Below are positions 17,440 to 33,828 of a stretch of DNA of 64,000 nucleotides, piece by piece. The stretch lies in assembly GCA_002840895.1 (NCBI GenBank), contig PHCZ01000002.1, positions 157,786 to 221,785 on the forward strand. Direction: 5' to 3'. The stretch's first letter is position 1, and every line of letters starts with the position of its first letter. The DNA is from Bacteroidetes bacterium HGW-Bacteroidetes-8. Lineage in GTDB: Bacteria; Bacteroidota; Bacteroidia; Bacteroidales; UBA932. A program made the translations under genes and the position numbers. The notes beneath the pieces are model-generated. The model was not told the DNA's origin and searched no databases. It was given only the letters and a program-made list of their open reading frames with translations.

Positions 17440-19731
17440 CTACTTTAACCTTAAGGTGCTTTGCAGCGCCTCTGCTTTAAGCTCTGGGGCGGTAGTTTTA
17501 TCGTTATACACTGCTTCGAGTGCATTAATAATCTCGCTTTTTCTTATGCTCCAGTTAAACCAGCCCAAAGCCTCTGCCATAGTGATTCTCACTTTAAGGT
17601 TGTCGCCGGTATCTGCAAGAACATTTATAAAATGGGATGTCTGTTTGTGGTTGTTGTAGTTTCTAAGTGATCTTACTGCAGATATCCTTTTTTCAGGTGT
17701 ACTGTTTTTATCCTTAATTGTTGCCAGGGCTGTCTCCTGTCTTTTAAACTCACTATTAAAGTAACCTGTAAGATCGCTTGCTGTTTTGGATGGGTTAAGC
17801 AGATTTGAGCCTTCGCTCTGTCTTTTGACCTCCTCTAAAACCATCTCCTTTTCGAACATAAGCAGAGAGCTCTGTGCAGCGTACTGAACCCTGATGCTCT
17901 CGTTTGAGAATAGCAGGGTGTTTACCAACGGTTTTACAAGCGCAGGATTACCCGAGTAACCACAAAAGCGGGCAGCATTTCTTCTGATAAGTTCATAAGG
18001 ATCTTCTAAAGCAACTAAAAGCGCCTCTGCAAAATTATTGTCAGAGAGGTCAATAAATCTTTTAAGCGCCTGCATACGAACAATGTAGTAAGGGCTCTCT
18101 TTTAAGACCTTCAAAAGAAGATCTGAGTAGCCTGCCGGAGGGTTTTTTGAGAGCTGTTTAAGAGCTGTTGCCAGGTAATTTGGGTTCTCTCCATTTTTCT
18201 CAAAAATGCTCATCCAGTACCTGCTATCTTTTGATCTGGTTGCAAGATCTCTGTTTAACAAATCTCCCCGCTCTCTGTTTTTTGCAGATTGCTCTCCCAA
18301 AACTTTGGATTGCTCTGACGAAATCACCGGTGGTGTTCCCGGAATCAGACGATATGTTGGGTCTCCTATCAGGTGAGACTCAAGGGTTTGGATCTCTTTT
18401 TGCCAGAACCCCACTCTTGCACCCTCTGCCAGCATACCGATAAGCTCCATTGACCATTTATCCTGCAATACATTTACAGTATTGCCCTGGGCAACCACAG
18501 TGTTACCATCTGCAAAAACGTGGTAGCCGGCAATATAGCCTTTCTGGTGGAAAGAGCCGTTGTAGCAAGCGTCAAAGATGGTTATTCTTGACTGTGGCGT
18601 AATTGTCTTAAGGTCTGCAAGGGAGATGTTGATATTGGCAGCAAATGTAGAGTCGGCAGCTTTGGTTGAGCGGAGAAGCTCTGCGTCAAAGAAGGCCTCT
18701 GTGAGGCCAAAATCTGCCATCATACTGCTTTTAAAGTTGCTTTTCCTCTCTCCTGTGTATCTGCGATAAGTATTCCTGACAGAGGCAGAGAGTGCCTCCA
18801 TCGGGCCCGTAACTTTTCCGCTAAGGGTATTAGGTGCCGGGTATTCTCCGCTAATATACTGGGTGTCGAAGGCTCCGTGTTCGTGAAAAACAAAGAGGTC
18901 GGTACCTTTTCGCTGCATCCTCTCATAAAGTTTGAACTTCATAAAAGGGTCCTGGCGGAAGTTGTAGAAGCCGTTACCTTTAGAGCTCTTAAAAGCAGCA
19001 GGAAACTGCTCTTTAATTGCAAACTGCTGGTTCTGCCATACAGTAAGGCAATCTGAGTTATAACCGTGTCCGTTAAAGAAGATAATATTATCTGCATAGT
19101 TCTCTTCCAGATGCGCCTCTACAGCCTTTTTGAAGAATCGTCTTATGAGCTCATAAGTGTCCACTCCAAAATCTGAGGGAGGTAGTACTCTTGCGGAGTA
19201 GAACTCGCTCTCTATCTTTTGCCCAGAGCTCTCTTTAAGATTATAGTAGAAGTGGCGTGGGTTAAGAGAGCCCTTTTTAAAAAACTCAAACTCAAGGTCC
19301 AGATCGTCATAATATCTGTCACTTGTAACAGAAGATTCGGTGATGGGGAAGTTCTCTTCATCCATCTTAAATGCAGTGGTTGCGTGCTGGAAATTTCTAA
19401 CCCTTACAACAGGGATATCTCCGACAAACAGAGCCCCCTCCATTACCGGACGCTTGTTGTAGATCTTTCGTATCTCTTCACGCAGTGTCTCGGGTGAGCT
19501 CCACTCCCCTATGAGAATCTCAACTCCCAAACCCTCCTTTTCAAGCACTTTTTTATACTCTGCAACCTCAGATGATGCCGCTTCGAAGCTTGTTCGGTCT
19601 ATTACAACCAGAAATCTGGATGCATATTTACCCTTTGCAGGGATAATGCGACTTCTCCCCTCCATCTCCGATAAAGATCCAATCAGTATCAGAGCTAAAA
19701 ATATGTATTTTATTATTTTTTTCATCTTCAT
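17440..19731 (-). CDS. C25-like (gingipain-fold) cysteine peptidase with HEAT repeats, copy 3
   Basis: A 763-residue exported protein. After a signal peptide (about 1-25) comes a region resembling Peptidase_C25: a VLEKEGLGVEI strand, ALFVGDIPVV, SDRYYDDLDLEFEF, then two strand-HG motifs (FFNGHGYNS with His222, and FVFHEHG with His285) and a nucleophile strand ITIFDACYNG with Cys389, followed by the SHLIGDPTYR typical of the end of the C25 domain. By clan CD logic His285 and Cys389 are the likely dyad. Residues about 480-763 are alpha-helical repeats of HEAT type (AVRSLRNYNNHKQ, VRITMAEALGWFNW). There is no gingipain propeptide and no T9SS sorting domain. Six bases separate it from copy 2. Confidence 0.7.
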   Translation of the reverse strand: MKMKKIIKYIFLALILIGSLSEMEGRSRIIPAKGKYASRFLVVIDRTSFEAASSEVAEYKKVLEKEGLGVEILIGEWSSPETLREEIRKIYNKRPVMEGALFVGDIPVVRVRNFQHATTAFKMDEENFPITESSVTSDRYYDDLDLEFEFFKKGSLNPRHFYYNLKESSGQKIESEFYSARVLPPSDFGVDTYELIRRFFKKAVEAHLEENYADNIIFFNGHGYNSDCLTVWQNQQFAIKEQFPAAFKSSKGNGFYNFRQDPFMKFKLYERMQRKGTDLFVFHEHGAFDTQYISGEYPAPNTLSGKVTGPMEALSASVRNTYRRYTGERKSNFKSSMMADFGLTEAFFDAELLRSTKAADSTFAANINISLADLKTITPQSRITIFDACYNGSFHQKGYIAGYHVFADGNTVVAQGNTVNVLQDKWSMELIGMLAEGARVGFWQKEIQTLESHLIGDPTYRLIPGTPPVISSEQSKVLGEQSAKNRERGDLLNRDLATRSKDSRYWMSIFEKNGENPNYLATALKQLSKNPPAGYSDLLLKVLKESPYYIVRMQALKRFIDLSDNNFAEALLVALEDPYELIRRNAARFCGYSGNPALVKPLVNTLLFSNESIRVQYAAQSSLLMFEKEMVLEEVKRQSEGSNLLNPSKTASDLTGYFNSEFKRQETALATIKDKNSTPEKRISAVRSLRNYNNHKQTSHFINVLADTGDNLKVRITMAEALGWFNWSIRKSEIINALEAVYNDKTTAPELKAEALQSTLRLK

Positions 19732-19737
19732 CTCACT

Positions 19738-21900
19738 TTATCGCATATACACCTCTAATCTCGCAATTGTCTTTGTAAGCTCATCCAGAAGCTTAGGGTC
19801 AATCTCTCTATTTTGGGAGGCTTCTTTGCAGGCAGCCACAATTTCGCCTCTTCTATGTGAGAGGTTAAACCAACCCAGAGCCTCTGCCAGAGCAATTCTC
19901 ACTTTGACATCATCCTTCGGGTCTTTCAAAACTATCAGCAAATCGTCAACTTTGTTGTGATATGTGTTGTTCCTGAGCATCTTCACAGAAGCCAGCCTGG
20001 CCTTAGTGCTTTTGTCCCTGTTTGTGACATCGTCTGCCATCTGGGCAATCCGTCTGCGGGAGTCAAATCTATCTTTGAAATCTGCCCAAACAACTCTCTT
20101 ATCATAAAAAGTTGTGTTTAAGTCCAGCTGAGCTTTAACCTCATTCTCAAGCTTATCCATATCCATAAGGTCAAAACCGAAGGCGGCATTAAACTGCACC
20201 CTCTCGTCCAGATAGTCATTAAGATAAACCTTTGCTATATGTGGTATATACTCATCTTTTCCAACTCTTCCCATTGCAAATGTAGATTTACGCCTTATGA
20301 ACTCATAAGGGTCATAAACAGAACTTTTGATAAGCTCTTCAAATTTCCCGTTATTGTAGAACTGAAGCAGATGGAAACATTGAAGCCTTACTGTATAGAG
20401 TTGAGAGCTGTTATATGTATCCAGAAGCAGCTCATCCAGGTTGGGATAGTCAAGAGCGAACAGTTTATGTAGTGCCAAACCTTGAAGGTCGGCCTCTTTT
20501 TCTAGTTTAAGTACAGATAGCCAGTATTGAGAATCTTTCGACTTAAAGTCGATTGATTTGGTCTTAGCAGATTTAAAGCGGAAAGTAGGATCTCCAATGA
20601 TATGAGATTCCAGAATGTTTACATTTTGCATCCACTCCCCTACGCTAAACCCAAGCCCAAGCATACCCATAAGGTCACAGGCAGATTTATCCTGCAGCAC
20701 ATTTACGCTGTTCCCGATGGAAACAACAGTCTTACCCTCGCTAAAGATGTACTCAGCTGCAATGGAGGACTCTTCCCTAAAATCTGCGTTGTAACAGGCG
20801 TCAAAGAGAACAACCCTTGCATTTGGTTTAATGTTTGGAATATCTTCAAGCAAGATACCCATCTTTGCATCGTCCAGTGAGTCCTTAACTAGTTGTTTAG
20901 GGTCCAAAAAGCCTTCAAACCAGGTGGAGTCAATTTTGTATTGGCTCATCCATTTGGTTTTCATCTGCTCCCTCTTAGCTGAATCGCTCTCTTTTGCGAG
21001 TGCAGTTCTAAAAAGGGCCCTTGCAGATTCGCTGTACTCAGATACCCCTTTGCTTAGAGGAATTCCTGTAAGATATTGCCTGTAAGGCATCCCGTGCTCG
21101 TGAAAGAGCATCAGGTCCATCTCCTCACGCCTTAACTCCTCACTAACTATATCCTTCATATATGGATACATATTGAAAAGCAAAAACTTAACAGAGTTTT
21201 TGTCTTTAAAAGAGTTCGGGAACTGCTCCCGGAGCGTGTGCCCCTCCTCTTTCCAGGCAGTTATGCTGTTTGAAAATGAGCCGTCTCCGGTATATGATAT
21301 AATGACATCCAAGTAGTTATCCTTAGCTCTCTCTTTGAGAAGCTTCTTAAAATAGCCTCTTATCTGGTTGTACCCCTGCTCACCTGACTTTGTAGGCTTG
21401 ATTCTCCCGCTGTAGATATCACAACTAATTTTTTGAGGAGAGTCTCCCCTCAAAGAGTAGTAGTGAAAAAGGGAATTAACACTATCCTTACCTAAGTAGT
21501 TAAATTTAAGATCGAAGTCATCGTAGTAGCGGTCCGAAGGGACCGAGGAGCTCTTGAAGGGGAAGAGCTCCTGATCCATTTTAAATGCAGAAGTAAAGTG
21601 CTGAGCATCTCTTAACATTGGAATTGGGATCTCTCCTAAAAAGAGAGCACCCTCAAGACCTTTGTCAAGATATAACCTCTGCAGGACATCCTTAACCTGC
21701 ATAGGATTACTCCACACCTGCGCAACCACTACAGCGGAGAGCCCCTCTCTCTCCAACACAGATCTGTAGTTTTCTATTTCGGCCCTGCAGGCCGTGTAAG
21801 TATCTTTGTCAACAATTATGGCAAACCCCCTCTCTGCGCTTTTTAACTGCGCAGAGAGCGAGATTACCAATAGAACAAGAATTAATAACTTTTTATACAT
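19738..21900 (-). CDS. C25-like cysteine peptidase with HEAT repeats, copy 2
   Basis: A 720-residue paralogue of its neighbours. Signal peptide about 1-22, C25-like domain about 25-440 and HEAT-type helices about 455-720 (VRLQCFHLLQFY, VRIALAEALGWFNL). The likely dyad is His269 in LFHEHG and Cys369 in VVLFDACYNA. The first strand-HG motif of the other copies is changed here to TGDG (Asp206 in place of His), which supports the second HG as the catalytic one. SHIIGDPTFRF closes the domain. Spaced 6 bases from copy 3 and 15 from the DUF6850 gene, so certainly in one transcript. The substrate is unknown; a protease acting on an outer-membrane partner is one option. Confidence 0.7.
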   Translation of the reverse strand: MYKKLLILVLLVISLSAQLKSAERGFAIIVDKDTYTACRAEIENYRSVLEREGLSAVVVAQVWSNPMQVKDVLQRLYLDKGLEGALFLGEIPIPMLRDAQHFTSAFKMDQELFPFKSSSVPSDRYYDDFDLKFNYLGKDSVNSLFHYYSLRGDSPQKISCDIYSGRIKPTKSGEQGYNQIRGYFKKLLKERAKDNYLDVIISYTGDGSFSNSITAWKEEGHTLREQFPNSFKDKNSVKFLLFNMYPYMKDIVSEELRREEMDLMLFHEHGMPYRQYLTGIPLSKGVSEYSESARALFRTALAKESDSAKREQMKTKWMSQYKIDSTWFEGFLDPKQLVKDSLDDAKMGILLEDIPNIKPNARVVLFDACYNADFREESSIAAEYIFSEGKTVVSIGNSVNVLQDKSACDLMGMLGLGFSVGEWMQNVNILESHIIGDPTFRFKSAKTKSIDFKSKDSQYWLSVLKLEKEADLQGLALHKLFALDYPNLDELLLDTYNSSQLYTVRLQCFHLLQFYNNGKFEELIKSSVYDPYEFIRRKSTFAMGRVGKDEYIPHIAKVYLNDYLDERVQFNAAFGFDLMDMDKLENEVKAQLDLNTTFYDKRVVWADFKDRFDSRRRIAQMADDVTNRDKSTKARLASVKMLRNNTYHNKVDDLLIVLKDPKDDVKVRIALAEALGWFNLSHRRGEIVAACKEASQNREIDPKLLDELTKTIARLEVYMR

Positions 21901-21915
21901 TCCTTAAGAGCAACA

Positions 21916-23481
21916 TTAGAAGGTAAATCCAAGGCCGATAGTTGTCTGCATACGATTCCCTTCACCCTCTACAGGTTTGTAGTAATCTGCAGCAACTTTA
22001 ACAAACATACCGGATTTATTACTACGGCTGATATTTGTAAAGTAGCTCACCTCACCCCCTATTTTATAATAGTCCTGTCTTGAGTATTGCATATCCGGTG
22101 TCATAAACTGGGTAATAACAGGGGAGGTAGCATCTGCTCCTTTATAGATATAGTAACCATTAATATTGTTTTTATAGATAAAATCTGCACCCAGAATCAA
22201 TCTGTTTGCAAGTTTTAGAGGAATATTTGTCTTTGCATTAATTCCAAAGAAAAGATTCTCAACCCTCATTTTGGATTTAGGTAAGATGTAGAGGTCGTCG
22301 TTATCTCTGTAGTTAGCGAAGAGCCCGGCTTTCCACTTGTACTCGTGAGCAGCGCCGCGGAAGAAGTCGTATTTGGCAACCATATCAATCTGGTTGTAGG
22401 TAGATCTTACACTGCTGTATACATCTACCCAGCGCTGAACTTCATATGTATTGTCAAGAACCTGAACATACTCGATTCCGCTACTGTTATTTACACTGTA
22501 TGATAGATCCAGACGGTGAAAATTGTCACAGCTTTTGGTTACTGTAAGGTTTGCCGACATCATCTCCTCCTTTATGGTTCCCTCTTTCTTTGGTTTTGTC
22601 GGGGAGCTGATAACATCCTCTACCCTTAGGTGATAGTTACCGGATAGAATGAAATTGATATCGGAAATTCCGTATGAGTACTGGATATCGCCTCCAATCT
22701 TATTACCACTGTAAACAAACTGACCCAAAGATTGAAGTCCGCCCACTACTGCCGAGTAGAAATTTCCAAGCCCTTTAACAACATAGACATCCTGGCTTAG
22801 CTGACCGTTACTGTTGGTAGTTCTGGTCTCTTCTACAAGGTTTTGATAGACCATATTTACCCCTACAGAGTGTTTGCCGAACATAGCTGCAATACCAGGT
22901 TTTACAGTAATGGTGTAGAAATATCCAACAGAACGAGGGTCTACCTGTTTAGCTCCGGTGCTTGTTACATATTCACCCTGAATACCTACTATATACTTAT
23001 CCCATAAAGGTTTGCTGGCAACCTTCATCTCCAGTTTATAGTTCTGTCTTTTCCAGTCACTCATATTTTTATCTACTGTATAGAATGGCATACCTCTCTC
23101 GGGGTTGATCATAGTGGTATTGTAAAGAGTATTTCTCAGGGTTTCGTTATTGTAGGAGAATTTACCCCAAACATAACCTCCGCTAAGTTTTAGTCCACCC
23201 TCTGTAGATACGCCAAGAGTACTCTCCTTCTCTCCGTCGTGGCTCTTTTTAAAGTCGCCGCTCTTAATTTTATATTGAAAATTAAGGTCGCTATAGTCGT
23301 GCATCTTGTCCAATGTGAGACCCGCTGCGTTGTTTGTATTGAACCATAAAGATTTAGCCTTTAACAATTCAATAGATGCCGGCGAATTTTGCTTCGCCGC
23401 CTCCTGGGCAACCGCTGAATTAGTGGTTATTAGAGTCATAATTAGTGCTCCTGCCCAATATATATATTTAACTTTTCTCAT
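21916..23481 (-). CDS. DUF6850-like outer-membrane beta-barrel protein, module 1
   Basis: A 521-residue exported protein. The start at 23481 is chosen because it gives a clean signal peptide (MRKVKYIYW to AVAQ) and exactly the same length as its paralogue at 39933; a longer in-frame reading from 23526 would overlap the previous gene. NTNNAAGLTLDK near residue 45 is the kind of segment I associate with the DUF6850 family, and the remainder is alternating strands ending in QTTIGLGFTF, as expected for an outer-membrane barrel. It forms a trio with the DUF4876 and TonB-receptor genes just upstream. No biochemical role is known to me. Confidence 0.72.
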   Translation of the reverse strand: MRKVKYIYWAGALIMTLITTNSAVAQEAAKQNSPASIELLKAKSLWFNTNNAAGLTLDKMHDYSDLNFQYKIKSGDFKKSHDGEKESTLGVSTEGGLKLSGGYVWGKFSYNNETLRNTLYNTTMINPERGMPFYTVDKNMSDWKRQNYKLEMKVASKPLWDKYIVGIQGEYVTSTGAKQVDPRSVGYFYTITVKPGIAAMFGKHSVGVNMVYQNLVEETRTTNSNGQLSQDVYVVKGLGNFYSAVVGGLQSLGQFVYSGNKIGGDIQYSYGISDINFILSGNYHLRVEDVISSPTKPKKEGTIKEEMMSANLTVTKSCDNFHRLDLSYSVNNSSGIEYVQVLDNTYEVQRWVDVYSSVRSTYNQIDMVAKYDFFRGAAHEYKWKAGLFANYRDNDDLYILPKSKMRVENLFFGINAKTNIPLKLANRLILGADFIYKNNINGYYIYKGADATSPVITQFMTPDMQYSRQDYYKIGGEVSYFTNISRSNKSGMFVKVAADYYKPVEGEGNRMQTTIGLGFTF

Positions 23482-23507
23482 TTTAATATTATTGATGATG
23501 TTAAACA

Positions 23508-24728
23508 CTATTTCCAAGTATTCCAAGATGGGGCTTTTGCACCATATCTTCTGATAACAGGAGGGTTCAACACTTCAAAATCCTCCGAACTGTTGTTTGT
23601 GTCATACAGAATTACCCTTCCGTCTGTCTTTGTCTCTTTAACCTTTCTGCCAACACTCACACTCAGGTAAGTCCCGCCAACGGTAGCTGCTCCTGCATCT
23701 AATACAGCCGGCATCCTCTTAAGCTGAACCTGATTTGCATTACCTACCAACTCAAGGGCATCCACAACCTCATCAATAGGAATTTTGTAGTTCTTGGATG
23801 TACTCCCTACCGGGCTTATGAAATTCGCAGGGTTAATAGCAACGGAAGGATAGTAGATTACAAAAGCTCCTCCAAAGACAGTTGTTAACCACTGAGGCGT
23901 AGGAGATGGCCAGAATGCCATCACCATATTAATTGCAGGATTGTTCTGAATTAGAGAAGTAGTGTTTATGAAGGTCTCAAACTCTGCGCTTAAAAGATTA
24001 ACCGGAGAGTTTGGATTTAGATTTGACTTCTTATGGTCATCTGCCATTTGGGCAATAATAATTGACTCACCTGGATTAAGAGGGTAGTCAACATCTGTTG
24101 GTACTTGCCATATTGTAGAGGCATAGACAAACTTGGAAGCATCATCTCCGGGCCATACAGGCAGATTGGCTGTTGCTGTAAGAGGGTTAAGAATTGCAAT
24201 ACACAAACCTCTAACATTCTGAACAGTTTCGCTGTTGTTATAAATTTCGTAGAACTGATCACGGAAATATGAACCGCCGGTTGGTGTTTTTGAACCACAA
24301 TAGTAGACCTCTTTCAAAACCAGTGCACCCGATTTCGAAGCACCTACATTGACTGTTATCTGTTTATTGTTTGTTACAACATCTACGTTTACCACATTAC
24401 CACTGTAGTTATAGGTAAATCCATCCTGAGCCTTTTCCGAAGACAATGTAATGGTATAAATCCCCGGAATTATACCTTCAACAGTAACAGTACCGTTTGC
24501 ACCCATAGTGGTGTTAACCTCATACCTTTCGGCATAGTTTATCAGTTTAACATTAAATCCATTGGGAGCCGGAGCGGATCCCAAGTCGAGGTTCGCTTTA
24601 ACCACTACGCTTAGTGATTCTATTTCACCTATTTTGGAAACATCTTCGAACTGCTGGCACGATGCAGCGGTGAAAAGAGCCAAAACAGCTACTATTAATA
24701 TTTTATAAATATTTTTCATCTCTGACAT
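23508..24728 (-). CDS. DUF4876 lipoprotein, module 1
   Basis: A 406-residue lipoprotein (signal, lipobox TAASC near residue 24). An N-terminal beta-sandwich (about 35-130) resembles a carboxypeptidase-regulatory or Ig-like fold. The second part starts with ALVLKEVYYCGSKTPTGGSY and FYEIYNNSETVQNVRGL, reminiscent of a lamin-tail-like domain, and the C-terminus holds VILYDTNNSSEDFEVL, conserved in the paralogue at 41511. The family (DUF4876) is uncharacterised and found in Bacteroidetes. By position it is probably the surface lipoprotein partner of the receptor 8 bases upstream, playing a SusD-like capture role; that role is inference. Confidence 0.75.
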   Translation of the reverse strand: MSEMKNIYKILIVAVLALFTAASCQQFEDVSKIGEIESLSVVVKANLDLGSAPAPNGFNVKLINYAERYEVNTTMGANGTVTVEGIIPGIYTITLSSEKAQDGFTYNYSGNVVNVDVVTNNKQITVNVGASKSGALVLKEVYYCGSKTPTGGSYFRDQFYEIYNNSETVQNVRGLCIAILNPLTATANLPVWPGDDASKFVYASTIWQVPTDVDYPLNPGESIIIAQMADDHKKSNLNPNSPVNLLSAEFETFINTTSLIQNNPAINMVMAFWPSPTPQWLTTVFGGAFVIYYPSVAINPANFISPVGSTSKNYKIPIDEVVDALELVGNANQVQLKRMPAVLDAGAATVGGTYLSVSVGRKVKETKTDGRVILYDTNNSSEDFEVLNPPVIRRYGAKAPSWNTWK

Positions 24729-24736
24729 ATTTTTAA

Positions 24737-27601
24737 CTATTTGATTGTTAATGCCAGCTCAAATCCGAAGAACATAGGAATGTTCAGTCGGGTGAATGAG
24801 CCCGGTGTTCGTTTACTCTCATAGAGAGGCCTGCTGTTAAACATATTGTTCGCATAGAAGGAGGCCTTTAGGTTCTCTCCAATCTCTTTTGTAAGGTAGA
24901 AGTTGATAAGAAGAACAGGGAAATAGGCTTCGGCTACAAAACGAGATGGACTTCTGCTACTGAACATATATGCAAATTCCGGGTCGTTTTTAAGTGCAGG
25001 ATCAAATGGCTTGATCTGTCCGTCAACTCTTGAGATGTACGAGACAAAAGTTGTATCATTTCCGTAGCTTGTCCAGCTCTTATTGTGCCAGTTAACCTGT
25101 GCGGTAGCTGTCACTACAAATCCGATAGAAGGTATATTATGAATAACTCTTAGCGTTGTTAAGAACCTCTCTCTCTGGTCTTTTGTGTTTCCCTCTTCGT
25201 AGATACCGATGTTTTTCTCCAGGCTATTAAGATTCTTATTTGTCCCGAAGCTATTTGCATCATTCCACTCGGTGCTTCTCATATATGCCCCGCTAAGTAC
25301 AAATGAGGTTCTTATTGCGTCAAACCTTCCGAAGTCAAAATCAAATTCAACCCCTCTGTTATTCGCTTTAACAGTATTCATCGGGGTTGCAAAGCTTACA
25401 AACACCTTGTTAGTGGATTTCTCCTTAAGCTTAGGTATAGAACCTGGTACTGCCTCACCAACTTCATACTGAACGTAGTTGATAAGTCTGAAGTTTTCTG
25501 CCCTCATACCCAAATCGTATCCATTGATAAGGTTTTCGTTGTAGGCAGTAACTGAGAATCTCATTTTTTTGATCCTGAGGTCAAAACCAAATTCGCTTTT
25601 GGCGTTGGAAGCTATCTTAAGAGCCTTATTCTCGGTATTGAAAATTTTGGTTGAAGATAGTAGGAGCTGCTCTGCAACCGGAATTGACGAGCTGTTGAGA
25701 GTATTGTAGTGGACAAAATCGAAATAGGCGTTCTCCGGGCTAAGGTATATTGTCCCCGGTGCTTTGGCAGATACTCCGTATCCCCCTCTTATCCATAATG
25801 ACGCCGGTAGAAGCTCAAACGATGCATTAAAACGCGGAGCAACAATATTTTTACCGGCAATGTTGTCATATCTCACTCCGGCCTGAGCGGTAAGATCTCT
25901 ATCCCCGATGTTCCAGGTTAGGTTCTCCTCGGCATATAGACCCATTTGGGTTATGAAAGGTATATCGGAATATTTACGAGGTCTTGATGATGAGTTTTCT
26001 GAACTTAATACCCTGTATGGAGGGTTTTTAAGATCGTAGACTTTCCCGTCACCAAGGTTTCCGTCTGTCTTGAAATCTGCACCCAAAACTATTCTATTGG
26101 TAATGTTTCCACTTCTTTTAGAAAAGGTTGCGTTTATTTTTGCAAAAACGTTAAGCTCTTTACCATAGATATCGTAACGACTGAAATATTCGTTAGGCAG
26201 ATATGTGGCATAGTAGCTACTCTCACTTGAAGGTATGTTTGTCAGTTCAGTTCCGTTCATATGGTACACCTTCTGCCCAGGTTTGTTACTTAAAACTGCA
26301 CCATCTGTAGTTGACATCGAGTAGGCAGAGAAAGCATTACCCAGTAGCTCCTGACGGAATGAGTGTTTATCTCTGTAGCTTGCAGATGCTGTATATTTGA
26401 TGTTATTGAGCCAGCCCCAGTTAATGTTCCAGGTTCCGTTTGTGTTAAACCTGATACCCATATCCTTTGCACCTGTCTCAAGCTGAGTTCTCTCGTCATC
26501 CGGATTTCTCTCGCGTGTATCTTTACCAAGAGAGAGGTCGAATGAGGTTGTAGTTGAGAGGTTTTTAAAGGTGTTTGAATAGAGTGCTTTTGCGGTAACC
26601 CTCTGGTAATATGCATATGACTCTGTTTGATCTGAAGCGCTGTATGCATAGTCTCCGCTGATATTTATGTTTCCTCTCTTCTCTCCAAGGCTTATCCCTT
26701 TACTTACAGATGTCTGATAGATGTTAGGGTCGGTTTTAAACCTTATTGTAAGAGGCTCTTTACCTGCTTTAGACCTTACGATTACCGCACCTGATGTTAA
26801 GTCTCCGTATTCAACTGATGGAATACCTCTTATAACCTCTACAGACTCAATGTTATCTGTTGATATTGAGCGGATATCCAACCCTGAGTTAGGAGAGGAC
26901 CCCCCTGCAACAGCTGAGCCGCCACCACTGATTGTTGGATTAAGAGTCTGCATATTGGCATTATTTGAGAGTGGTGCACCATCCACAATAATAGAGGTAC
27001 CCATACTGTTCATATTTGTTGCAGACCCACCTATACTACGAATCGTAAAGGTTTTGGCAATAGAGAGGCTTGGGTTTACAGTGATTCCACCGGGAAGTAG
27101 CTGCATAATATCCGAAAGCGAGCTGGTTTGTAGGTGGTCCATTGCCTGTCTTGAGATATTGGAGGCAGTTGCCTGTCCCGCCTTCCCTGCCGTAGCCACT
27201 ACTGTCACGTCTGAAAGACGGAATGAGCTATACTGCATACGGAAGGTGATCTCGGTCACCTTACCGGCAGTAAGTACAAAGGTGGTATCAACGGTCTCCA
27301 TCCCGAGAAACTGGATTTTAACATCCACTCTCCCCGGAGATAGTCTCTCAAATGAGAACTCCCCCTTTGTAGTGGTAGTAGTTACCGACCCCTGAGGGAG
27401 AACCTGAATTGTTGCAAACTCAACCGGGATATTTTCCGATCCGCGCTCAAGCACAACACCTTTTAACGTAGCATAATTTCCCTGAACAGAAGTTTGTGCC
27501 GAGAGATTGGCACAAAATCCCATTACAAGAAACAACACTAACGCAGACAGAGCAAATGACTTCGCACCTCTGTCCGGAACCTGGATTTTGTGTCTCTTCA
27601 T
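24737..27601 (-). CDS. TonB-dependent receptor with CarboxypepD_reg-like domain, module 1
   Basis: A 954-residue outer-membrane receptor. Order: signal peptide (about 1-36, LSAQ), carboxypeptidase-regulatory-like domain (about 45-125; ATLKGVVLERGSENIPVEF), plug (about 135-265) with TSLSDIMQLLPGG, a Gly/Ser-rich loop SGGGSAVAGGSSPNSG and NIESVEVIRGIPSVEYGD, then a barrel ending in FFGFELALTIK. No SusD follows; instead a DUF4876 lipoprotein and a DUF6850 barrel do. The substrate is not known. It sits 53 bases after a C25-like gene on the same strand. The plug resembles that of the receptor at 42761, showing the two modules are paralogous. Confidence 0.88.
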   Translation of the reverse strand: MKRHKIQVPDRGAKSFALSALVLFLVMGFCANLSAQTSVQGNYATLKGVVLERGSENIPVEFATIQVLPQGSVTTTTTKGEFSFERLSPGRVDVKIQFLGMETVDTTFVLTAGKVTEITFRMQYSSFRLSDVTVVATAGKAGQATASNISRQAMDHLQTSSLSDIMQLLPGGITVNPSLSIAKTFTIRSIGGSATNMNSMGTSIIVDGAPLSNNANMQTLNPTISGGGSAVAGGSSPNSGLDIRSISTDNIESVEVIRGIPSVEYGDLTSGAVIVRSKAGKEPLTIRFKTDPNIYQTSVSKGISLGEKRGNINISGDYAYSASDQTESYAYYQRVTAKALYSNTFKNLSTTTSFDLSLGKDTRERNPDDERTQLETGAKDMGIRFNTNGTWNINWGWLNNIKYTASASYRDKHSFRQELLGNAFSAYSMSTTDGAVLSNKPGQKVYHMNGTELTNIPSSESSYYATYLPNEYFSRYDIYGKELNVFAKINATFSKRSGNITNRIVLGADFKTDGNLGDGKVYDLKNPPYRVLSSENSSSRPRKYSDIPFITQMGLYAEENLTWNIGDRDLTAQAGVRYDNIAGKNIVAPRFNASFELLPASLWIRGGYGVSAKAPGTIYLSPENAYFDFVHYNTLNSSSIPVAEQLLLSSTKIFNTENKALKIASNAKSEFGFDLRIKKMRFSVTAYNENLINGYDLGMRAENFRLINYVQYEVGEAVPGSIPKLKEKSTNKVFVSFATPMNTVKANNRGVEFDFDFGRFDAIRTSFVLSGAYMRSTEWNDANSFGTNKNLNSLEKNIGIYEEGNTKDQRERFLTTLRVIHNIPSIGFVVTATAQVNWHNKSWTSYGNDTTFVSYISRVDGQIKPFDPALKNDPEFAYMFSSRSPSRFVAEAYFPVLLINFYLTKEIGENLKASFYANNMFNSRPLYESKRTPGSFTRLNIPMFFGFELALTIK

Positions 27602-27654
27602 AGTTAATAATTGTTAATTTGGGTTAGTTGTATAAGTTTTTTTCTATATTCTTA

Positions 27655-29814
27655 TTAATAAGTAAGCCGATACACTGTTCTCAGAAGCTCTTTTTTGACA
27701 GCTTCGCTCTTCTCTACTTGTGCCTGCTCTTTGCAAAAGGCAACTATCTCGTCTCTTTTACTTGAGTTGGTGTACCATCCGAACGCCTCTGCCAGATATA
27801 CTTTTAGTTCTGCATCTTCCGATGTTTTAAGAAACTTAAACAGGATATCCAGATAGGCAATACTATTGGAGTTGCGTAGAGCTGTTATGGAAAATCGTTT
27901 GCTTTTTGCAGCTACTGCAGGATTTAAAAGATCTGTATACTCCTTCTCCGTTCTCTCCAGAGTATAGAGCATACTTTTTCTCTCCTTTGCTCTGTTTTTA
28001 TACCACTGGTCATCTTTGGACTCTACGTGATTCTTAAATGCTTCCAGAGCATCACTTTTCGAATAGGCCTCACATCCACCCTTTAGCTGAAACTCAACTC
28101 TTTTACTTGTTCCCGGCGCAAATCTTACATTGAAAATATCATCAATAAGCTCGGGAGAGAGATTTGTAGATGCATCTTTGGCAGCAAGCCTTCTAATTAA
28201 CTCATAGTTATCGTAAAGACCGGCCCTTAAAGATGCAACCAAGTTAGGGTTATCCTTTTTATTTATTAGATAGAATGCCTGCAGCCTTACCGTTGGCCTG
28301 CTTTCACTCCTCTGGATCGATAGAAGCTCTTCTGTTGAGATCTTCCCTGAAAAGTAGAGCATTTTCATTGCCAATGATTTCAACTCAGGATTTGAATCTT
28401 TCATAGCCTTTCTCCAGAGCTTTTCGTCACTCTTATTTAACACCATAGCCTCATCTAGCCAGTTAAGATCTGCTCTTGACGAAGCGTATCTGAAAGTGGG
28501 GTCTCCAATGAGATGAGACTCAAGTGTCATCTGACCTTTTGCCCAGTTACCAACACTCACACCAAGGTCCATAAGGCCTATCAGCTGATTTGTCCAGGTG
28601 TCCTGCAGAGTGTTAACCGAATTTGCCTTTACAACAACTGTCTTTCCATCGTTGAAAATATAGTGACCGCTGATGTAGTCATTCAGGTGGAAAGAGCCGT
28701 TAAAGCAAGCGTCTATTAAGATAACCGGAACATTGGATTTATACCCGTACATATCGGGAATGGTAATATCCATCGAAGCATCATCAAGGCTATCCTTTCT
28801 CATCACCTCTGGATTAAAAGCGTTCTCTACCCAGGACTCAGGAACAGAGTAGTTCTCTACGTAATATTTTTTTGACGCAGTAGTGTCATCTGAACCTCTT
28901 ATTTTGCCTCTGAAAAATTTCTTAGTAAGTTCCAGCCATATATTGGCCGAATTGGTGATTGGTGAACCGTTAAGAAGTTGCGCATCTTCCGATCCGTGAT
29001 GGTGAAGTACAGCGAGGTCGAGATCTTCTCTGGAGAGCTCTGCCATAAGGCGATACTTAACATAGTCGTCAAAGGTAAAGTCTATATAATTCAATTTGCC
29101 TTTCCCCTCACGAAAAATATTGAACTGCTCTATTAGAGTCACTCTCTCATCTGCACGAGAGACCATACAGTTTGAGTTGTATCCGTGACCTGCAAAATAT
29201 GAAAGATCTGTTATACCTCTTTTAACACTCTTCTCTCTGACCGCTTTGTCCAGATATTCGTTTATAAGCTCAAAGCTATTTTTCCCTGGAACTACCGGCG
29301 GTTTGATGCGTGCGCTATAGATGTCACAGTTGATTCTGTGCGGCGAGTTGTCACTCAGGTTATAGTAATGAAAAAGAGTGTGAACAGAGTCTCTTTTGAT
29401 ATATTCAAACTTAAGGTCAAAGTCATCATAGAACCTGTCCGAAGGAATAGATGAATCCTCCCAGGCTCTTCTCTGGTCCATTTTAAAAGCTGTTGAGAGG
29501 TGCTGACCATTCCTGATCATTGGGATAGGTATATTACCTATAAAAATAGCCCCCTCAAGATTTTTATCTGCATATAGTTTGTACAGGTGGGCTCTTAAAG
29601 AGTCCGGCACTCCCCACTTATCTAACACTACTATTGGGACAAGTCCGTCGGTCATTATGGAGCCGGCAAAACCATCGATTGAACTCTTGCAGTTGTCGTA
29701 GGTGATCATATCAACCACGATTGCAACTGCTCTTTTTGCAGGCTTTGCTATTAGAAAACCTGACTGAAGCATTGAAAATGAAATCAGTAATATTGTAACA
29801 AATTTTTTCATCAT
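27655..29814 (-). CDS. C25-like cysteine peptidase with HEAT repeats, copy 1
   Basis: A 719-residue paralogue of the two C25-like genes at the far end of the cluster, placed upstream of the TonB receptor. Signal peptide about 1-23; C25-like domain to about 445 with FAGHGYNS (His210), VLHHHGSED (His273, likely catalytic) and VILIDACFNG (Cys370, likely nucleophile), ending SHLIGDPTFRY; HEAT-type helices to the C-terminus (VRLQAFYLINK, LKVYLAEAFGWY). The HHHGSE segment is the closest of the three to the HGSE of gingipains as I remember them. No propeptide, no Ig domain, no T9SS tail. Flanking the receptor trio on both sides, the three copies look like working parts of the system rather than bystanders. 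Confidence 0.7.
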   Translation of the reverse strand: MMKKFVTILLISFSMLQSGFLIAKPAKRAVAIVVDMITYDNCKSSIDGFAGSIMTDGLVPIVVLDKWGVPDSLRAHLYKLYADKNLEGAIFIGNIPIPMIRNGQHLSTAFKMDQRRAWEDSSIPSDRFYDDFDLKFEYIKRDSVHTLFHYYNLSDNSPHRINCDIYSARIKPPVVPGKNSFELINEYLDKAVREKSVKRGITDLSYFAGHGYNSNCMVSRADERVTLIEQFNIFREGKGKLNYIDFTFDDYVKYRLMAELSREDLDLAVLHHHGSEDAQLLNGSPITNSANIWLELTKKFFRGKIRGSDDTTASKKYYVENYSVPESWVENAFNPEVMRKDSLDDASMDITIPDMYGYKSNVPVILIDACFNGSFHLNDYISGHYIFNDGKTVVVKANSVNTLQDTWTNQLIGLMDLGVSVGNWAKGQMTLESHLIGDPTFRYASSRADLNWLDEAMVLNKSDEKLWRKAMKDSNPELKSLAMKMLYFSGKISTEELLSIQRSESRPTVRLQAFYLINKKDNPNLVASLRAGLYDNYELIRRLAAKDASTNLSPELIDDIFNVRFAPGTSKRVEFQLKGGCEAYSKSDALEAFKNHVESKDDQWYKNRAKERKSMLYTLERTEKEYTDLLNPAVAAKSKRFSITALRNSNSIAYLDILFKFLKTSEDAELKVYLAEAFGWYTNSSKRDEIVAFCKEQAQVEKSEAVKKELLRTVYRLTY

Positions 29815-29915: not shown

Positions 29916-30356
29916 TCATAAAATCAGCTGACGATTCAACTCGAATATGGGTATCGGGGCGCATCGGAACAGCGCGTGAAAAGTTTTGATAATTGGACGC
30001 TGAATAATGGTTATCCCAAGACAGAGCATATTCTGCGGCAATAACAGTGAGATGTCCGTTAAAATAAAACTGAATAGGTGACCCTGAACATCTTGATCTG
30101 AATCAAGGAAATAGTATGAGACCGAACAGCAGTCATCTTTTTTTGGTTCTTTTGCCAACAGGTGCTCACCACATATGCAACGATGACCTTTATGGGCACT
30201 CTCAACCTCGTGGGTACAAGAGCATTGTGTGCGTATACCAAAAAAAGATATTTGGGATGCGTGGTCGCAGTGACAGGAATATCTGCCTACACCCATCATC
30301 GTAAAAAGATAGATGGAAATTGATGTAGTAGCCAGTATGAAATTCTTTACAACCAC
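29916..30356 (-). CDS. Small Cys/His-rich protein (HYC_CC_PP-like)
   Basis: A 146-residue protein with an N-terminal hydrophobic segment (about 5-22) and eight Cys between residues 28 and 77: three CxC pairs (28/30, 45/47, 60/62) and a CC at 76-77, mixed with His 29, 32, 49, 55, 58 and 65. This layout recalls the small HYC_CC_PP-type proteins encoded beside metal-linked TonB receptors in Bacteroidetes; the match is by pattern, not by close similarity. It probably binds a soft metal or a metal complex in the periplasm (inference). The start is a GTG at 30356; a good promoter lies just upstream within the DUF6599-like gene. Confidence 0.55.
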   Translation of the reverse strand: MVVKNFILATTSISIYLFTMMGVGRYSCHCDHASQISFFGIRTQCSCTHEVESAHKGHRCICGEHLLAKEPKKDDCCSVSYYFLDSDQDVQGHLFSFILTDISLLLPQNMLCLGITIIQRPIIKTFHALFRCAPIPIFELNRQLIL

Positions 30357-30379: not shown

Positions 30380-30413
30380 CAAATGTAGTAAAAATTTTTG
30401 TTTAAAACTCAAA
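30380..30413 (-). promoter_or_regulatory. Putative promoter for the C25/TonB operon
   Basis: On the minus strand TTTG (30410-30413) is followed after 22 bases by TACATTTG (30380-30387), an exact TAnnTTTG. It lies at the 3' end of the DUF6599-like gene and 24 bases before the GTG start of the Cys-rich gene, so the downstream seven genes could be transcribed separately from DUF362. Confidence 0.55.
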
Positions 30414-31148
30414 CCGGATACAATCTTCGTCACAGGAAACAATAGAGGAGGCGGGAATTCTCTCTTTTAAAATTGTAAGATAATCTCTGTTATTTACATA
30501 AATTATCGCCAAATTCCTGTTGTTTAACCCCTTCTCTGCGACCCACAAGTTATAATCTGCAATCTCCTCAAAAAGGGGAGAGAGCTCGGGGGCAGCATTA
30601 ACCAAAGCTAGTTTACCCCGGACATATTTTACCCTTCCCGAAACCGGCCTATCTGTCGCAGATATATCTGCAGGAAATGCGGGGTTTCTCTTCTCTGTAT
30701 CCTTTGAGTAAATTGCCAGGAGTTCCGCCGCCTCTTTTTTAAACCTTATAGCAGATTTTTCATATACTATCGAGTAGTATACATCTCCGATTACTGCCTG
30801 CATCTGCAATGGAGAGAAGCAATTAAGCTGTGAAAGAGTATCTGCGCAATTGCAGCGGAAGGTGTGAAGTGAGTAGATACCGAAAGCATCCTCCGGTGAT
30901 GGCATTTTGTATATCTCAATAGAGTACTGCTCTCCTTTATAAGTCACCTCCAGGGCTCTTAGCTCTTTGAATCCGTACTCAAGATAGAGATCACTGCCAC
31001 CATTCATAAAGCCATACAGGGCAGTTCCGGTGAATGTTCGCTCTCTTGTAACCGTAAGCTCCTGTGCACAGAGGTGATCAACTGTATTAAGAAGAGTCAG
31101 GGCTGCAAATAATACTGCTATTTTGTTGATCTTTAAATTGAAATCCAT
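30402..31148 (-). CDS. DUF6599-like exported protein
   Basis: A 248-residue exported protein (signal about 1-28, ending LCAQE). It looks like the DUF6599 family: FTGTALYGFMNGGSDLYLEYGF near the start, then IEIYKMPSPEDAFGIYSLH and a paired RCNCADTLSQLNC. I recall members of this group occurring next to DUF362 proteins, as here (18-base gap). No catalytic motif is recognised. The RCNC motif could bind metal or form a disulfide. Function unknown. Confidence 0.55.
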   Translation of the reverse strand: MDFNLKINKIAVLFAALTLLNTVDHLCAQELTVTRERTFTGTALYGFMNGGSDLYLEYGFKELRALEVTYKGEQYSIEIYKMPSPEDAFGIYSLHTFRCNCADTLSQLNCFSPLQMQAVIGDVYYSIVYEKSAIRFKKEAAELLAIYSKDTEKRNPAFPADISATDRPVSGRVKYVRGKLALVNAAPELSPLFEEIADYNLWVAEKGLNNRNLAIIYVNNRDYLTILKERIPASSIVSCDEDCIRFEF

Positions 31149-31166: not shown

Positions 31167-32318
31167 CTATATTATTTTCTCTGTAATAGATATCTTATCA
31201 CGGTCTCCCACTCCAAGTTTAAGCTCCTGGGCAAGGTCTATAAATCTTGAAGATTTTTGTAAGTCCTCCTTCTGGATACCGTTCTCTATCCTTTTTTTAA
31301 TTATCACATCGTGACCGACTCTGTCTACAGCAACCGCGTCGCTACCAACAAGAAGCATATTGTAGTTGCAGATAAACTGAGGTTTTGCAGATGGACCTCC
31401 GTCGAAGCATCCCACCAAACCATCTACGATATTCAAGACAACCTTGTCTCTAAGAGGGGGAAATGCGCAAACATAGGCACAGGTCTCGTGCCATAGTTTG
31501 TGGAGCCTGGATGTGTTTGTGATTGCCCCGAATGAGAGGTTTTTGAGGCAGAGGGTGGTGGTTGGTCCTGCATTCTTCAAAATTGGAAGGTTAATAATCT
31601 TGGTAACCCTCTCTGTACATATTTTTGTGAAATATGACTCTTTCCCTCCGTTGACCATATATGGAATAGTGTAGTCGTCATAAACTCCATCAAGATTGGC
31701 ATAGAAGAATTGAGATTTATCTATGCGGCTCTCACTATGAAGTTTTCCCTCCTTATCATAGAAGCCACCATCTGCATCCTGGCACTCGGTTCCTGTAATT
31801 GTAATTCCGGGATAGTTCTCCTGAGTATACCCGGTCTCGTGCAGCTGCATCTCACGTCTGTCCCAAATAACAATGTTCTCTCTTGGGATTCCTGCCTCCT
31901 CCAGCTGCCTGATAACAGACTTTGTAACAGCGTGAGAGGTTGTCAAAAGCTTTCCGGCAACAGGGTTTACCTTAAGACCTATTATATCTTTGGGTCCTAC
32001 AAATTGTCGCCACGCCTTTTTTAGCTTTTTTTCGCCGGTTAACGAGAGCATCGCTTCGCTTAACATTCTGTATGCAGCCTCCTCCTGTGGTTTCCCATCA
32101 ATTACAGATTTTTCGTCCATCACTCTTATAACTTTTCCGGGGTAGAGTCCCGGCATAGAGTCTTTAACCCTTGGGATTTTTACTGCATCTGCAATATTAG
32201 TTTCTATAGCTTCTGCACCAAACAATAAGGGCGAACCCTCTGCTGCCTTAAGAACAGGATTTATTGCCATAGCGGCACCTGTCATAGAGACAACTTTGAA
32301 AAAGTCTCTTCTTTCCAT
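31167..32318 (-). CDS. DUF362 domain protein with Tat signal
   Basis: A 383-residue protein. The N-terminus ERRDFFKVVSMTG followed by a hydrophobic stretch is a twin-arginine signal, so it is likely exported folded, often a sign of a bound cofactor. The body fits DUF362: VGLKVNPVAGKLLTTSHAV, ENIVIWDRREMQLHETGY, ITNTSRLHKLWH, LNIVDGLVG and a C-terminal VAVDRVGHDVI. DUF362 proteins often accompany Fe-S proteins, but no CxxCxxC ferredoxin motif is present here. First gene of the minus-strand cluster, 37 bases after cysS on the same strand. Confidence 0.8.
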   Translation of the reverse strand: MERRDFFKVVSMTGAAMAINPVLKAAEGSPLLFGAEAIETNIADAVKIPRVKDSMPGLYPGKVIRVMDEKSVIDGKPQEEAAYRMLSEAMLSLTGEKKLKKAWRQFVGPKDIIGLKVNPVAGKLLTTSHAVTKSVIRQLEEAGIPRENIVIWDRREMQLHETGYTQENYPGITITGTECQDADGGFYDKEGKLHSESRIDKSQFFYANLDGVYDDYTIPYMVNGGKESYFTKICTERVTKIINLPILKNAGPTTTLCLKNLSFGAITNTSRLHKLWHETCAYVCAFPPLRDKVVLNIVDGLVGCFDGGPSAKPQFICNYNMLLVGSDAVAVDRVGHDVIIKKRIENGIQKEDLQKSSRFIDLAQELKLGVGDRDKISITEKII

Positions 32319-32355: not shown

Positions 32356-33828
32356 TCAAATACTCCACTCGGCTCCCTCTTTAGTATCCTTTATCGTTAT
32401 CCCAAGCCGGGAGAGATTATCCCTTATCATATCGCTCTTGGCAAAATCTCTGTTTGCTTTTGCCTCCTTTCTCATATCAAGTACCATCTCCATCACTCCA
32501 TTTATTATCTTACTGTTTGATGAGAGTGACTGCTCATCTGAAAGCCCTAAAACACCCTCTGCTATGTTTTCGAACAACTCCTCTATAACCTGCTTGTCTT
32601 CTGTTGTTAAGGATAACTGTCCATCTTTTGCAGAGTTTACAATTCTAACTGCATCAAACAGATGAGCAATTGCTATAGGAGTGTTCATATCGTCGCACAG
32701 TGCTTCGTAGATGCCATCTTGCAGGTTCTTAATATCAGGAGAGAGTGCTCCCTGTTTTGGATTGATTGATGAGATATCTCTTTTTGCCTGCATCATCCTT
32801 TTGTACCCCTTCTCTGCAGCGACTAGTGCTTCATTGCTGAAATCCAGAGTGCTTCTGTAGTGAGCCTGAAGAATAAAAAACCGTATTGTCATAGGTGTAT
32901 AGGGCTGAGTCAAAATCTTATGAGAGCCGGTAAAGAGCTCCTCTAAAGTTATAAAGTTGCCCAATGATTTCCCCATCTTTTGGCCGTTGATGGTAATCAT
33001 ATTGTTGTGCATCCAGTACTTAACCCCACCTGTTCCTCTTGAGGCTGTGTTCTGGGCAAGTTCGCACTCGTGGTGAGGGAACAGCAGATCCATTCCTCCT
33101 CCGTGTATATCAAAGCTCTCTCCAAGATATTTGGCGCTCATTGCAGAGCACTCCAGATGCCATCCCGGGAAACCAACGCTCCAGGGAGATGGCCATCTCA
33201 TAATATGCTCCGGAGCCGCTTTCTTCCAAAGCGCAAAGTCAAACTGTGACCTCTTATCCTGCTGCCCCTCCAGCACTCTGCCAGTATTGGATATCATATC
33301 TTCAAGGGATCTTCCCGAGAGAATACCGTAAGGGTAATCACTATTGTATCTCTCTACATCGAAGTAGACCGAGCCGTTGCTCTCATATGCAAATCCCTTT
33401 TCGAGAATTCTCTCCACAAGAGATATCTGCTCAATAATGTGGCCCGATGCTCTTGGTTCAATGCTTGGCGGCAATGTGTTAAGGAGCTTCATCGCCTCGT
33501 GATACCTTATCGTGTAGTGCTGCACAACCTCCATAGGCTCTAACTGCTCAATACGGGCCTTTTGTGCTATTTTGTCCTCTCCGCTGTCTGAATCATTCTC
33601 CAGGTGTCCCACATCGGTAATATTCCTGACATATCTCACCTTATAACCCAGGTGCCTAAAGAGCCTTACCAGCACATCGTAGGTAATTCCGGGCCTGGCG
33701 TGCCCCAGGTGAGCATCACCATACACAGTAGGGCCGCACACATAGATGCCGGCTAAACCGGGATTGATAGGTTCAAATTTCTCTTTTCTCCTTGTTAGTG
33801 TATTATATATCAAAAAATCTCTTTCCAT
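32356..33828 (-). CDS. cysS: Cysteine-tRNA ligase
   Basis: Cytosolic class I aminoacyl-tRNA synthetase, 490 residues, that charges tRNA-Cys. Seen: the zinc-site Cys in [19 protein letters not shown], which also holds the HIGH-type motif (HLGH); further zinc ligands in WHLECSAMS and [10 protein letters not shown]; the KMSKS loop as [11 protein letters not shown]; and a C-terminal helical anticodon-binding region ([14 protein letters not shown] onward). Length and motif order fit the family well. It lies downstream of ssb on the same strand with its own likely promoter. Confidence 0.96.

What the first reader, a model, noticed from the sequence alone, without database searches (positions are those of the whole stretch)
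31167..32318. Tat-type DUF362 protein paired with a DUF6599-like protein, without ferredoxin motifs
A twin-arginine signal implies export of a folded, possibly cofactor-loaded protein, yet no CxxCxxC cluster motif is present. The adjacent DUF6599-like protein carries RCNC and NC. The pair may be a periplasmic redox or metal unit.
Basis: partly seen in the sequence, partly recalled or inferred. Interest (0 to 1): 0.35.

Follow-up and report, generated by a model that had tools for sequence, protein, structure and literature searches.

The report
Exported DUF362–DUF6599 protein pair
Two neighbouring genes of unknown function make a protein pair with export signals that recurs side by side in many Bacteroidota; the larger one is predicted to fold like a nickel-cofactor racemase but probably does not use that cofactor.

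Summary
Window 31167-32318(-) is a DUF362 protein (PF04015, 53.8 bits, cut-off 24) with a twin-arginine N-terminus and no CxxCxxC; 18 nt downstream lies a DUF6599 protein (PF20244, 52.2 bits, cut-off 27). The pairing is real: 18 of 18 Bacteroidales genomes with a window-type DUF362 have DUF6599 beside it. Of 50 DUF6599 matches, 32 lie beside some DUF362, 10 beside a twin-arginine aldo/keto reductase, 7 beside neither, 1 at a contig end.

Homologues about 54-55% identical have Sec-like signals in genomes that own TatC, so cofactor loading before export is probably not required. DUF6599's cysteines look like an optional disulfide. The predicted DUF362 fold is closest to LarA, the nickel-pincer racemase, but 17 of 18 genomes, the window's included, lack LarC.

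Best reading: an exported LarA-fold, enzyme-like protein without that cofactor, with DUF6599 as partner; substrate unknown. In passing, another DUF362 type lies beside larC in eight genomes.

The parts
31167..32318 (-). DUF362 protein, 383 aa (window-type subfamily)
   Evidence: PF04015 E 3.4e-14; alignment A1 of 39
32238..32318 (-). N-terminal twin-arginine signal region, MERRDFFKVV...KAA
   Evidence: RR invariant in A1; TIGR01409 14.0 bits, below its cut-off of 16.7; TatC in the genome
31542..31544 (-). Lys259 codon, invariant (candidate equivalent of LarA Lys184)
   Evidence: equivalence to LarA is inferred from motif spacing only
31500..31502 (-). His273 codon, invariant (candidate equivalent of LarA His200)
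   Evidence: equivalence inferred from motif spacing only
31467..31469 (-). Cys284 codon, invariant
   Evidence: 39 of 39; also kept in the six phylum homologues aligned
31407..31409 (-). Cys304 codon, invariant
   Evidence: 39 of 39; also kept in the six phylum homologues aligned
30402..31148 (-). DUF6599 protein, 248 aa, Sec-like signal peptide
   Evidence: PF20244 E 7.2e-14; model pLDDT 89.3; signal type judged by eye
30969..31019 (-). DUF6599 signature LYGFMNGGSDLYLEYGF (residues 44-60)
   Evidence: L44, G46, G50, G51, E57, Y58, G59 invariant in A2 of 39; L44 and G50 nearly invariant in the broad set A3 of 20
30819..30854 (-). C99 ... C110, likely disulfide pair of the window-type partner
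   Evidence: both present 34 of 39, neither 2, C110 only 3, C99 only 0; disulfide is inferred
32356..33828 (-). upstream cysteinyl-tRNA synthetase-like gene (neighbour in a part of the relatives)
   Evidence: homologous gene upstream in 16 of 55 loci (cluster 4); name by recall
29916..30356 (-). small Cys-rich protein, GTG start
   Evidence: no Pfam or NCBIfam match up to E 0.1; homologue in 8 of 55 loci (cluster 15)

Best explanation
A conserved exported two-protein module. DUF362 is a periplasmic, LarA-fold, enzyme-like protein that does not carry the nickel-pincer nucleotide and need not be loaded with a cofactor before export. Its invariant Lys/His/Arg/Asp residues probably bind and act on a small anionic or hydroxy-acid-like ligand between the two domains. 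DUF6599, exported by Sec, is its dedicated partner and most likely binds or delivers the ligand or stabilises the enzyme. DUF6599 can serve several exported enzymes: at least three DUF362 types and a twin-arginine Fe-S aldo/keto reductase. Shown here: the pairing, its breadth, absence of LarC, and the cysteine pattern. Read from sequence by eye: the signal types. Predicted: the folds. Inferred: periplasmic location, enzymatic nature, ligand class and the partner role.
For: Pairing: 52 of 55 relatives have DUF6599 in the locus, and the 3 misses are contig ends; 47 of 48 measured gaps are at most 98 nt, median 18.5, start codons chosen by my script. Whole genomes: 18 of 18. Partner classes over 50 DUF6599 matches: 32 DUF362, 10 twin-arginine AKR, 7 neither, 1 contig end. 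Phylum sample: 15 of the 15 examined non-own matches (18 found, 3 not examined) lie beside DUF362 (13) or AKR (2). Fold: the 12 best PDB matches are LarA-like racemase chains or 4nar, E 5.8e-6 to 1.6e-3; the next match has E 0.014, probability 0.15. Cofactor before export not needed: Sec-like homologues in TatC+ genomes. No NPN: LarC absent in 17 of 18.
Against: TM-scores to LarA are only 0.31-0.38, and profile comparison with LarA found nothing. No catalytic activity or ligand is shown. The DUF6599 fold match (TP0453, TM 0.33, rmsd 17, E 6.9e-4) is too weak to prove ligand binding. In 7 of 50 matches DUF6599 stands without either partner. C284 and C304 are invariant and could still bind a metal. 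The five Sec-like window-type loci come from two families only (four from f179, one from f197), no signal-peptide predictor was run, and in the Bacteroidales sample 18 of 18 keep RR. Genome samples share lineages, and at least five contigs of the profile search have the lengths of contigs, so counts are not independent.
Confidence: 0.45

Rival explanations
1. Periplasmic metal or redox unit: DUF362 carries a metal through C284, C304, H273 and others, and DUF6599 passes metal or electrons.
For: C284 and C304 in 39 of 39, C317 in 36 of 39; DUF6599 also lies beside aldo/keto reductases with two 4Fe-4S motifs; in 8 of 55 relatives a small Cys-rich protein and a TonB receptor follow, and in L021 DUF6599 is fused to a TonB receptor-like barrel.
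Against: No CxxC motif; C317 is absent from all six phylum homologues aligned (four Sec-like, two with RR); DUF6599 cysteines are a pair that can be absent; the Cys-rich and TonB neighbourhood is confined to those 8 loci and the window.
Confidence: 0.22
2. NPN-dependent racemase or epimerase exported by Tat with its nickel cofactor already bound.
For: LarA-like fold match; K259 and H273 invariant; another DUF362 type sits beside larC in eight genomes.
Against: No LarC match in the window's genome or in 17 of 18 genomes with the window type; a histidine invariant in the paralogue type is alanine here, threonine in L021; Sec-like homologues.
Confidence: 0.07
3. Non-enzymatic ligand-binding or envelope-maintenance pair: DUF362 is a dead LarA fold that only binds a ligand, and DUF6599 resembles lipid or ligand-binding envelope proteins.
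For: Weak DUF6599 matches to TP0453, PknH extracellular domain and RseB (their ligand roles are recalled); loss of a histidine kept in the paralogue type; SRPBCC/AHSA1-like genes near several pairs.
Against: 85 invariant columns in DUF362 across 39 sequences, many charged, suggest a catalytic site; the place of DUF362 beside DUF6599 being taken by an aldo/keto reductase suggests enzymes.
Confidence: 0.2

Closest known systems
DUF362 (PF04015, clan CL0471)
   Same: Above gathering cut-off; profile-homologous to the paralogue in the same genome (HHalign probability 98.7%), sharing the KN and His positions
   Different: No ferredoxin motif; paired with DUF6599; Ala250 replaces a His of the paralogue type
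LarA / DUF2088 nickel-pincer racemases
   Same: Best predicted-fold match; Pfam puts DUF362 in the same clan (PMC11770544, passages read)
   Different: No Lar_N (PF09861) match, no LarC in the genome, sequence profiles do not align
DUF6599 (PF20244)
   Same: Above gathering cut-off, conserved signature
   Different: Nothing tested contradicts membership; no paper in the held library names the family
Own-genome DUF362 paralogue with a polyferredoxin beside it (L001)
   Same: Twin-arginine DUF362 without ferredoxin motif of its own (by eye)
   Different: Neighbour is a membrane polyferredoxin, not DUF6599; keeps H184-K194-H207

Membership tests
DUF362 (PF04015) | score above Pfam gathering cut-off | tested here: met
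   53.8 against 24 bits
DUF362 (PF04015) | ferredoxin-type CxxCxxC motif (frequent in the family, not defining) | tested here: not met
   sequence; cysteine census
DUF6599 (PF20244) | score above Pfam gathering cut-off | tested here: met
   52.2 against 27 bits
Tat substrate | twin-arginine motif and TatC in the genome | tested here: met
   the NCBIfam signal model is below its cut-off (14.0 against 16.7)
Tat substrate | export abolished without Tat | not testable with these tools
   needs a mutant; Sec-like homologues exist
LarA nickel-pincer enzymes | LarA fold | tested here: inconclusive
   12 best PDB matches, but TM 0.31-0.38
LarA nickel-pincer enzymes | Lar_N domain PF09861 | tested here: not met
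   no such match in the protein up to E 0.1; none in the genome
LarA nickel-pincer enzymes | NPN-making LarC in the genome | tested here: not met
   0 in own genome, absent in 17 of 18 genomes with the window type
LarA nickel-pincer enzymes | residues R75, K184, H200 and D72, H108, H174, K298 (PMC7583248) | tested here: inconclusive
   sequence alignment to LarA failed; spacing suggests K259/H273 and loss of H174

The most novel reading that the evidence does not exclude
DUF362 proteins are exported LarA-fold hydride-transfer enzymes. One type, paired with a quinone-side polyferredoxin and in eight genomes linked to larC, would be one of the sought non-LarA users of the nickel-pincer nucleotide. 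The window type is a relative that works without it, with DUF6599 in place of the polyferredoxin as its envelope partner. Against it: 44 of 60 genomes with that type have no LarC, and seven of the eight linked genomes also hold a LarA-like Lar_N match.
Probability: 0.12. Interest if true: 0.75.

Novelty: new variant of a known kind. Interest (0 to 1): 0.42.

Why it matters
Both families are of unknown function. Showing that DUF6599 mostly travels with DUF362s or Fe-S aldo/keto reductases that bear export signals gives a handle on both, and isolates such as Prolixibacter (L034, L035) and Dysgonomonas mossii (L052) carry the pair, so it can be tested. The larC link of another DUF362 type bears on an open question stated in PMC11796402 (passages read): about 15% of the genomes analysed there have larB, larE and larC homologues but no larA.

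Tried and rejected
Sequence searches of the PDB: single proteins and profiles gave no credible relatives. HHalign of DUF362 profiles against LarA profiles built from loci L081-L105 found nothing, so the LarA link rests on the predicted fold and on the Pfam clan named in PMC11770544. The idea of an NPN cofactor in the window type was tested with LarC and disfavoured. A DUF6599 search of the class with the Pfam model found 2 of 247 genomes; of the 22 genomes listed there 10 were of the window's order, and the Pfam model scores this subfamily weakly, so alignment searches replaced it. The thioredoxin reductase neighbour (19 of 55 loci; identity of one example) and the AHSA1 neighbour (16 of 55; one example) do not adjoin the pair in the window and were not taken as part of the unit. 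Literature searches in the held library: DUF362 9 papers, DUF6599 0, COG2006 4, PF04015 and related terms 8, nickel-pincer 14 (13 listed), larBCE 15 (12 listed), Tat/Sec 22 (5 listed); none of those listed is about the pair by title. I read passages of PMC11770544, PMC5742341, PMC7955657, PMC12611868, PMC7583248, PMC11796402 and only listings of the rest.

Full report
What is there. On the minus strand, 31167-32318 encodes a 383-residue DUF362 protein and 30402-31148 a 248-residue DUF6599 protein, 18 nt apart. The NCBIfam Tat model is below its cut-off (14.0 against 16.7 bits), but TatC is in the genome and RR is invariant in a 39-row alignment.

The pairing is real. A scan of GTDB genomes gave 55 relatives of DUF362. 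In 52 of 55 a DUF6599 homologue lies in the locus; the other three (L054, L055, L058) end at the contig edge. In 47 of 48 measured cases the gap is at most 98 nt (median 18.5); in L031 another gene of 707 residues intervenes. In an even draw of 198 Bacteroidales genomes, 18 had a window-type DUF362 (E below 1e-160) and 18 of 18 had DUF6599 beside it (my reading of the coordinates). The two sets overlap: at least five contigs of the second have the lengths of contigs in the first, so they are not independent.

DUF6599 has other partners. The same 198 genomes hold 50 DUF6599 matches. I looked at all 50: 18 by coordinates, and 32 through fetched loci. 32 lie beside a DUF362: 18 window-type, 12 of a 'mid' type (two of them at one locus, L077) and 2 of a shorter type; Pfam was run on one mid (L065) and one short (L078) example and both pass the cut-off, the rest were assigned by similarity. 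10 lie beside a twin-arginine aldo/keto reductase (L068, L069, L071, L072, L073, L118, L121, L122, L124, L128). The five printed in full and L128 show two C-terminal 4Fe-4S motifs, and Pfam confirms the family and cluster domains for L068; for L118, L121, L122 and L124 I saw only the family match and N-terminus. 7 have neither (L061, L062, L063, L067, L119, L120, L123) and 1 is at a contig end (L125). In the 20 loci L061-L080, a strict Tat pattern picked 14 of 174 ORFs; 13 of these 14 are the DUF362 or AKR beside DUF6599 (the pattern missed L066 and L068, whose RR is visible; L080 has no RR). In a draw of 296 Bacteroidota genomes, 14 have DUF6599 with 19 matches. Of 18 matches outside the window's genome I examined 15, and all 15 are beside DUF362 (13) or AKR (2).

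Tat is not obligatory. In the Bacteroidales sample 18 of 18 window-type proteins have RR. Among nine window-type proteins from the phylum sample, four have RR (L136, L139, L157, L159) and five have a plain hydrophobic signal without RR (L134, L135, L137, L140, L160) (by eye). Four of these five were aligned and are 54-55% identical to the window protein; L160 was not aligned. They come from two families, f179 (four) and f197 (one). TatC is present in all five of their genomes. One mid-type DUF362 (L080) is also Sec-like, and its genome G362 has TatC. So the protein can probably fold after export. This argues against a cofactor that must be inserted in the cytoplasm, though not against one acquired outside.

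Fold. The DUF362 model has mean pLDDT 88.5. Its 12 best PDB matches are LarA-like nickel-pincer racemase chains plus 4nar, which carries no function in its title. TM-scores are low (0.31-0.38), so this is a superfamily-level statement; Pfam's clan CL0471 agrees (PMC11770544, passages read). The DUF6599 model (pLDDT 89.3) matches TP0453 best (E 6.9e-4, TM 0.33), followed by the PknH extracellular domain and others. From memory these are envelope ligand or lipid-associated proteins; I treat this as a lead only.

No nickel-pincer cofactor in the window type. LarA binds it through R75, K184 and H200, with catalytic D72, H108, H174 and K298 (PMC7583248, passages read). The DUF362 paralogue type has invariant H184-K194-H207 in 8 sequences (A4). 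The window type aligns to it with Ala250 in place of the first His (Thr in L021), and keeps K259 and H273. Equating these with LarA H174, K184 and H200 rests on spacing alone. LarC is found in 24 of 198 genomes but not in the window's genome (95.7% complete), and in only 1 (G278) of the 18 genomes with the window type.

Cysteines. In DUF362, C284 and C304 are in 39 of 39 and C317 in 36 of 39. C284 and C304 persist in six phylum homologues (four Sec-like, two with RR), while C317 is absent from all six. C284 and C304 could be a disulfide or ligands. In DUF6599, C99 and C110 occur together in 34 of 39, neither in 2, C110 alone in 3, C99 alone in 0; C101 is in 3 of 39; four of 20 DUF6599s from a broader set have no cysteine. 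That is the behaviour of an optional disulfide.

Interpretation. I read the pair as an exported LarA-fold, enzyme-like protein with a dedicated partner. Shown: the pairing, its breadth and absence of LarC. Read by eye: the signal switch. Predicted: both folds. Inferred: location, catalysis, ligand class and the role of DUF6599. The closest alternatives are a metal/redox unit through C284/C304 and a non-catalytic binding pair.

Side lead. A different DUF362 type, that of the own-genome paralogue L001, is found in 60 of 198 genomes at E<=1e-40. Where I read its surroundings (L001, L106-L111, L117: 8 loci) a polyferredoxin gene adjoins it; NCBIfam's best match for two of these polyferredoxins is NapH-like but below cut-off. 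The type occurs in 16 of 24 LarC-positive genomes against 44 of 174 others (Fisher p 9e-5; not corrected for kinship). In eight genomes it lies within 2 kb of larC (G252, G257, G343, G348, G379, G426 read; G359 and G375 by coordinates). NCBIfam confirms larC, larE and larB in L107 and L108; L109 and L117 look the same by eye, L110 shows larC and larB but no larE in the stretch fetched, and L106 ends after larC. Against a cofactor link: 44 of the 60 genomes with this type, the window's own among them, have no LarC, and seven of the eight linked genomes also have a Lar_N (LarA-like) match that could use the cofactor; G379 has none.

Noticed in passing
L107, L108 (also L106, L109, L110, L117; G359:C54, G375:C3): A DUF362 of the paralogue type (RR and a polyferredoxin beside it where read) lies within 2 kb of larC in eight Bacteroidales genomes; larE and larB confirmed in L107 and L108 only. 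G379 has no Lar_N match at all; 44 of 60 genomes with this DUF362 type lack LarC.
   Followed up: partly
L068, L069, L071-L073, L118, L121, L122, L124, L128: Twin-arginine aldo/keto reductases next to DUF6599; two 4Fe-4S motifs in the six read in full.
   Followed up: partly
L021:4933-7353(+): DUF6599 fused in frame to a TonB-dependent receptor-like barrel (receptor named by eye); could be real or an assembly effect.
   Followed up: no
L074, L075, L077, L126, L127 and others: SRPBCC-like genes recur close to DUF362-DUF6599 pairs: Polyketide_cyc2 plus GyrI-like in L127, AHSA1 in L057, lookalikes by eye elsewhere.
   Followed up: no
L064, L119, L120: Membrane transporter genes near DUF6599; Pfam Mem_trans in L064 and L120, L119 by resemblance.
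   Followed up: no
window 17440-29814: Minus-strand run with a TonB receptor, DUF4876, DUF6850 and three large proteins with HEAT_2 matches, one above and two below cut-off; parts follow the pair in close relatives.
   Followed up: no
L159: A paralogue-type and a window-type DUF362 lie back to back, the latter followed by DUF6599.
   Followed up: no
window 45891-47846(+): 651-residue protein with Fer4_5 and Fer4 4Fe-4S domain matches.
   Followed up: no
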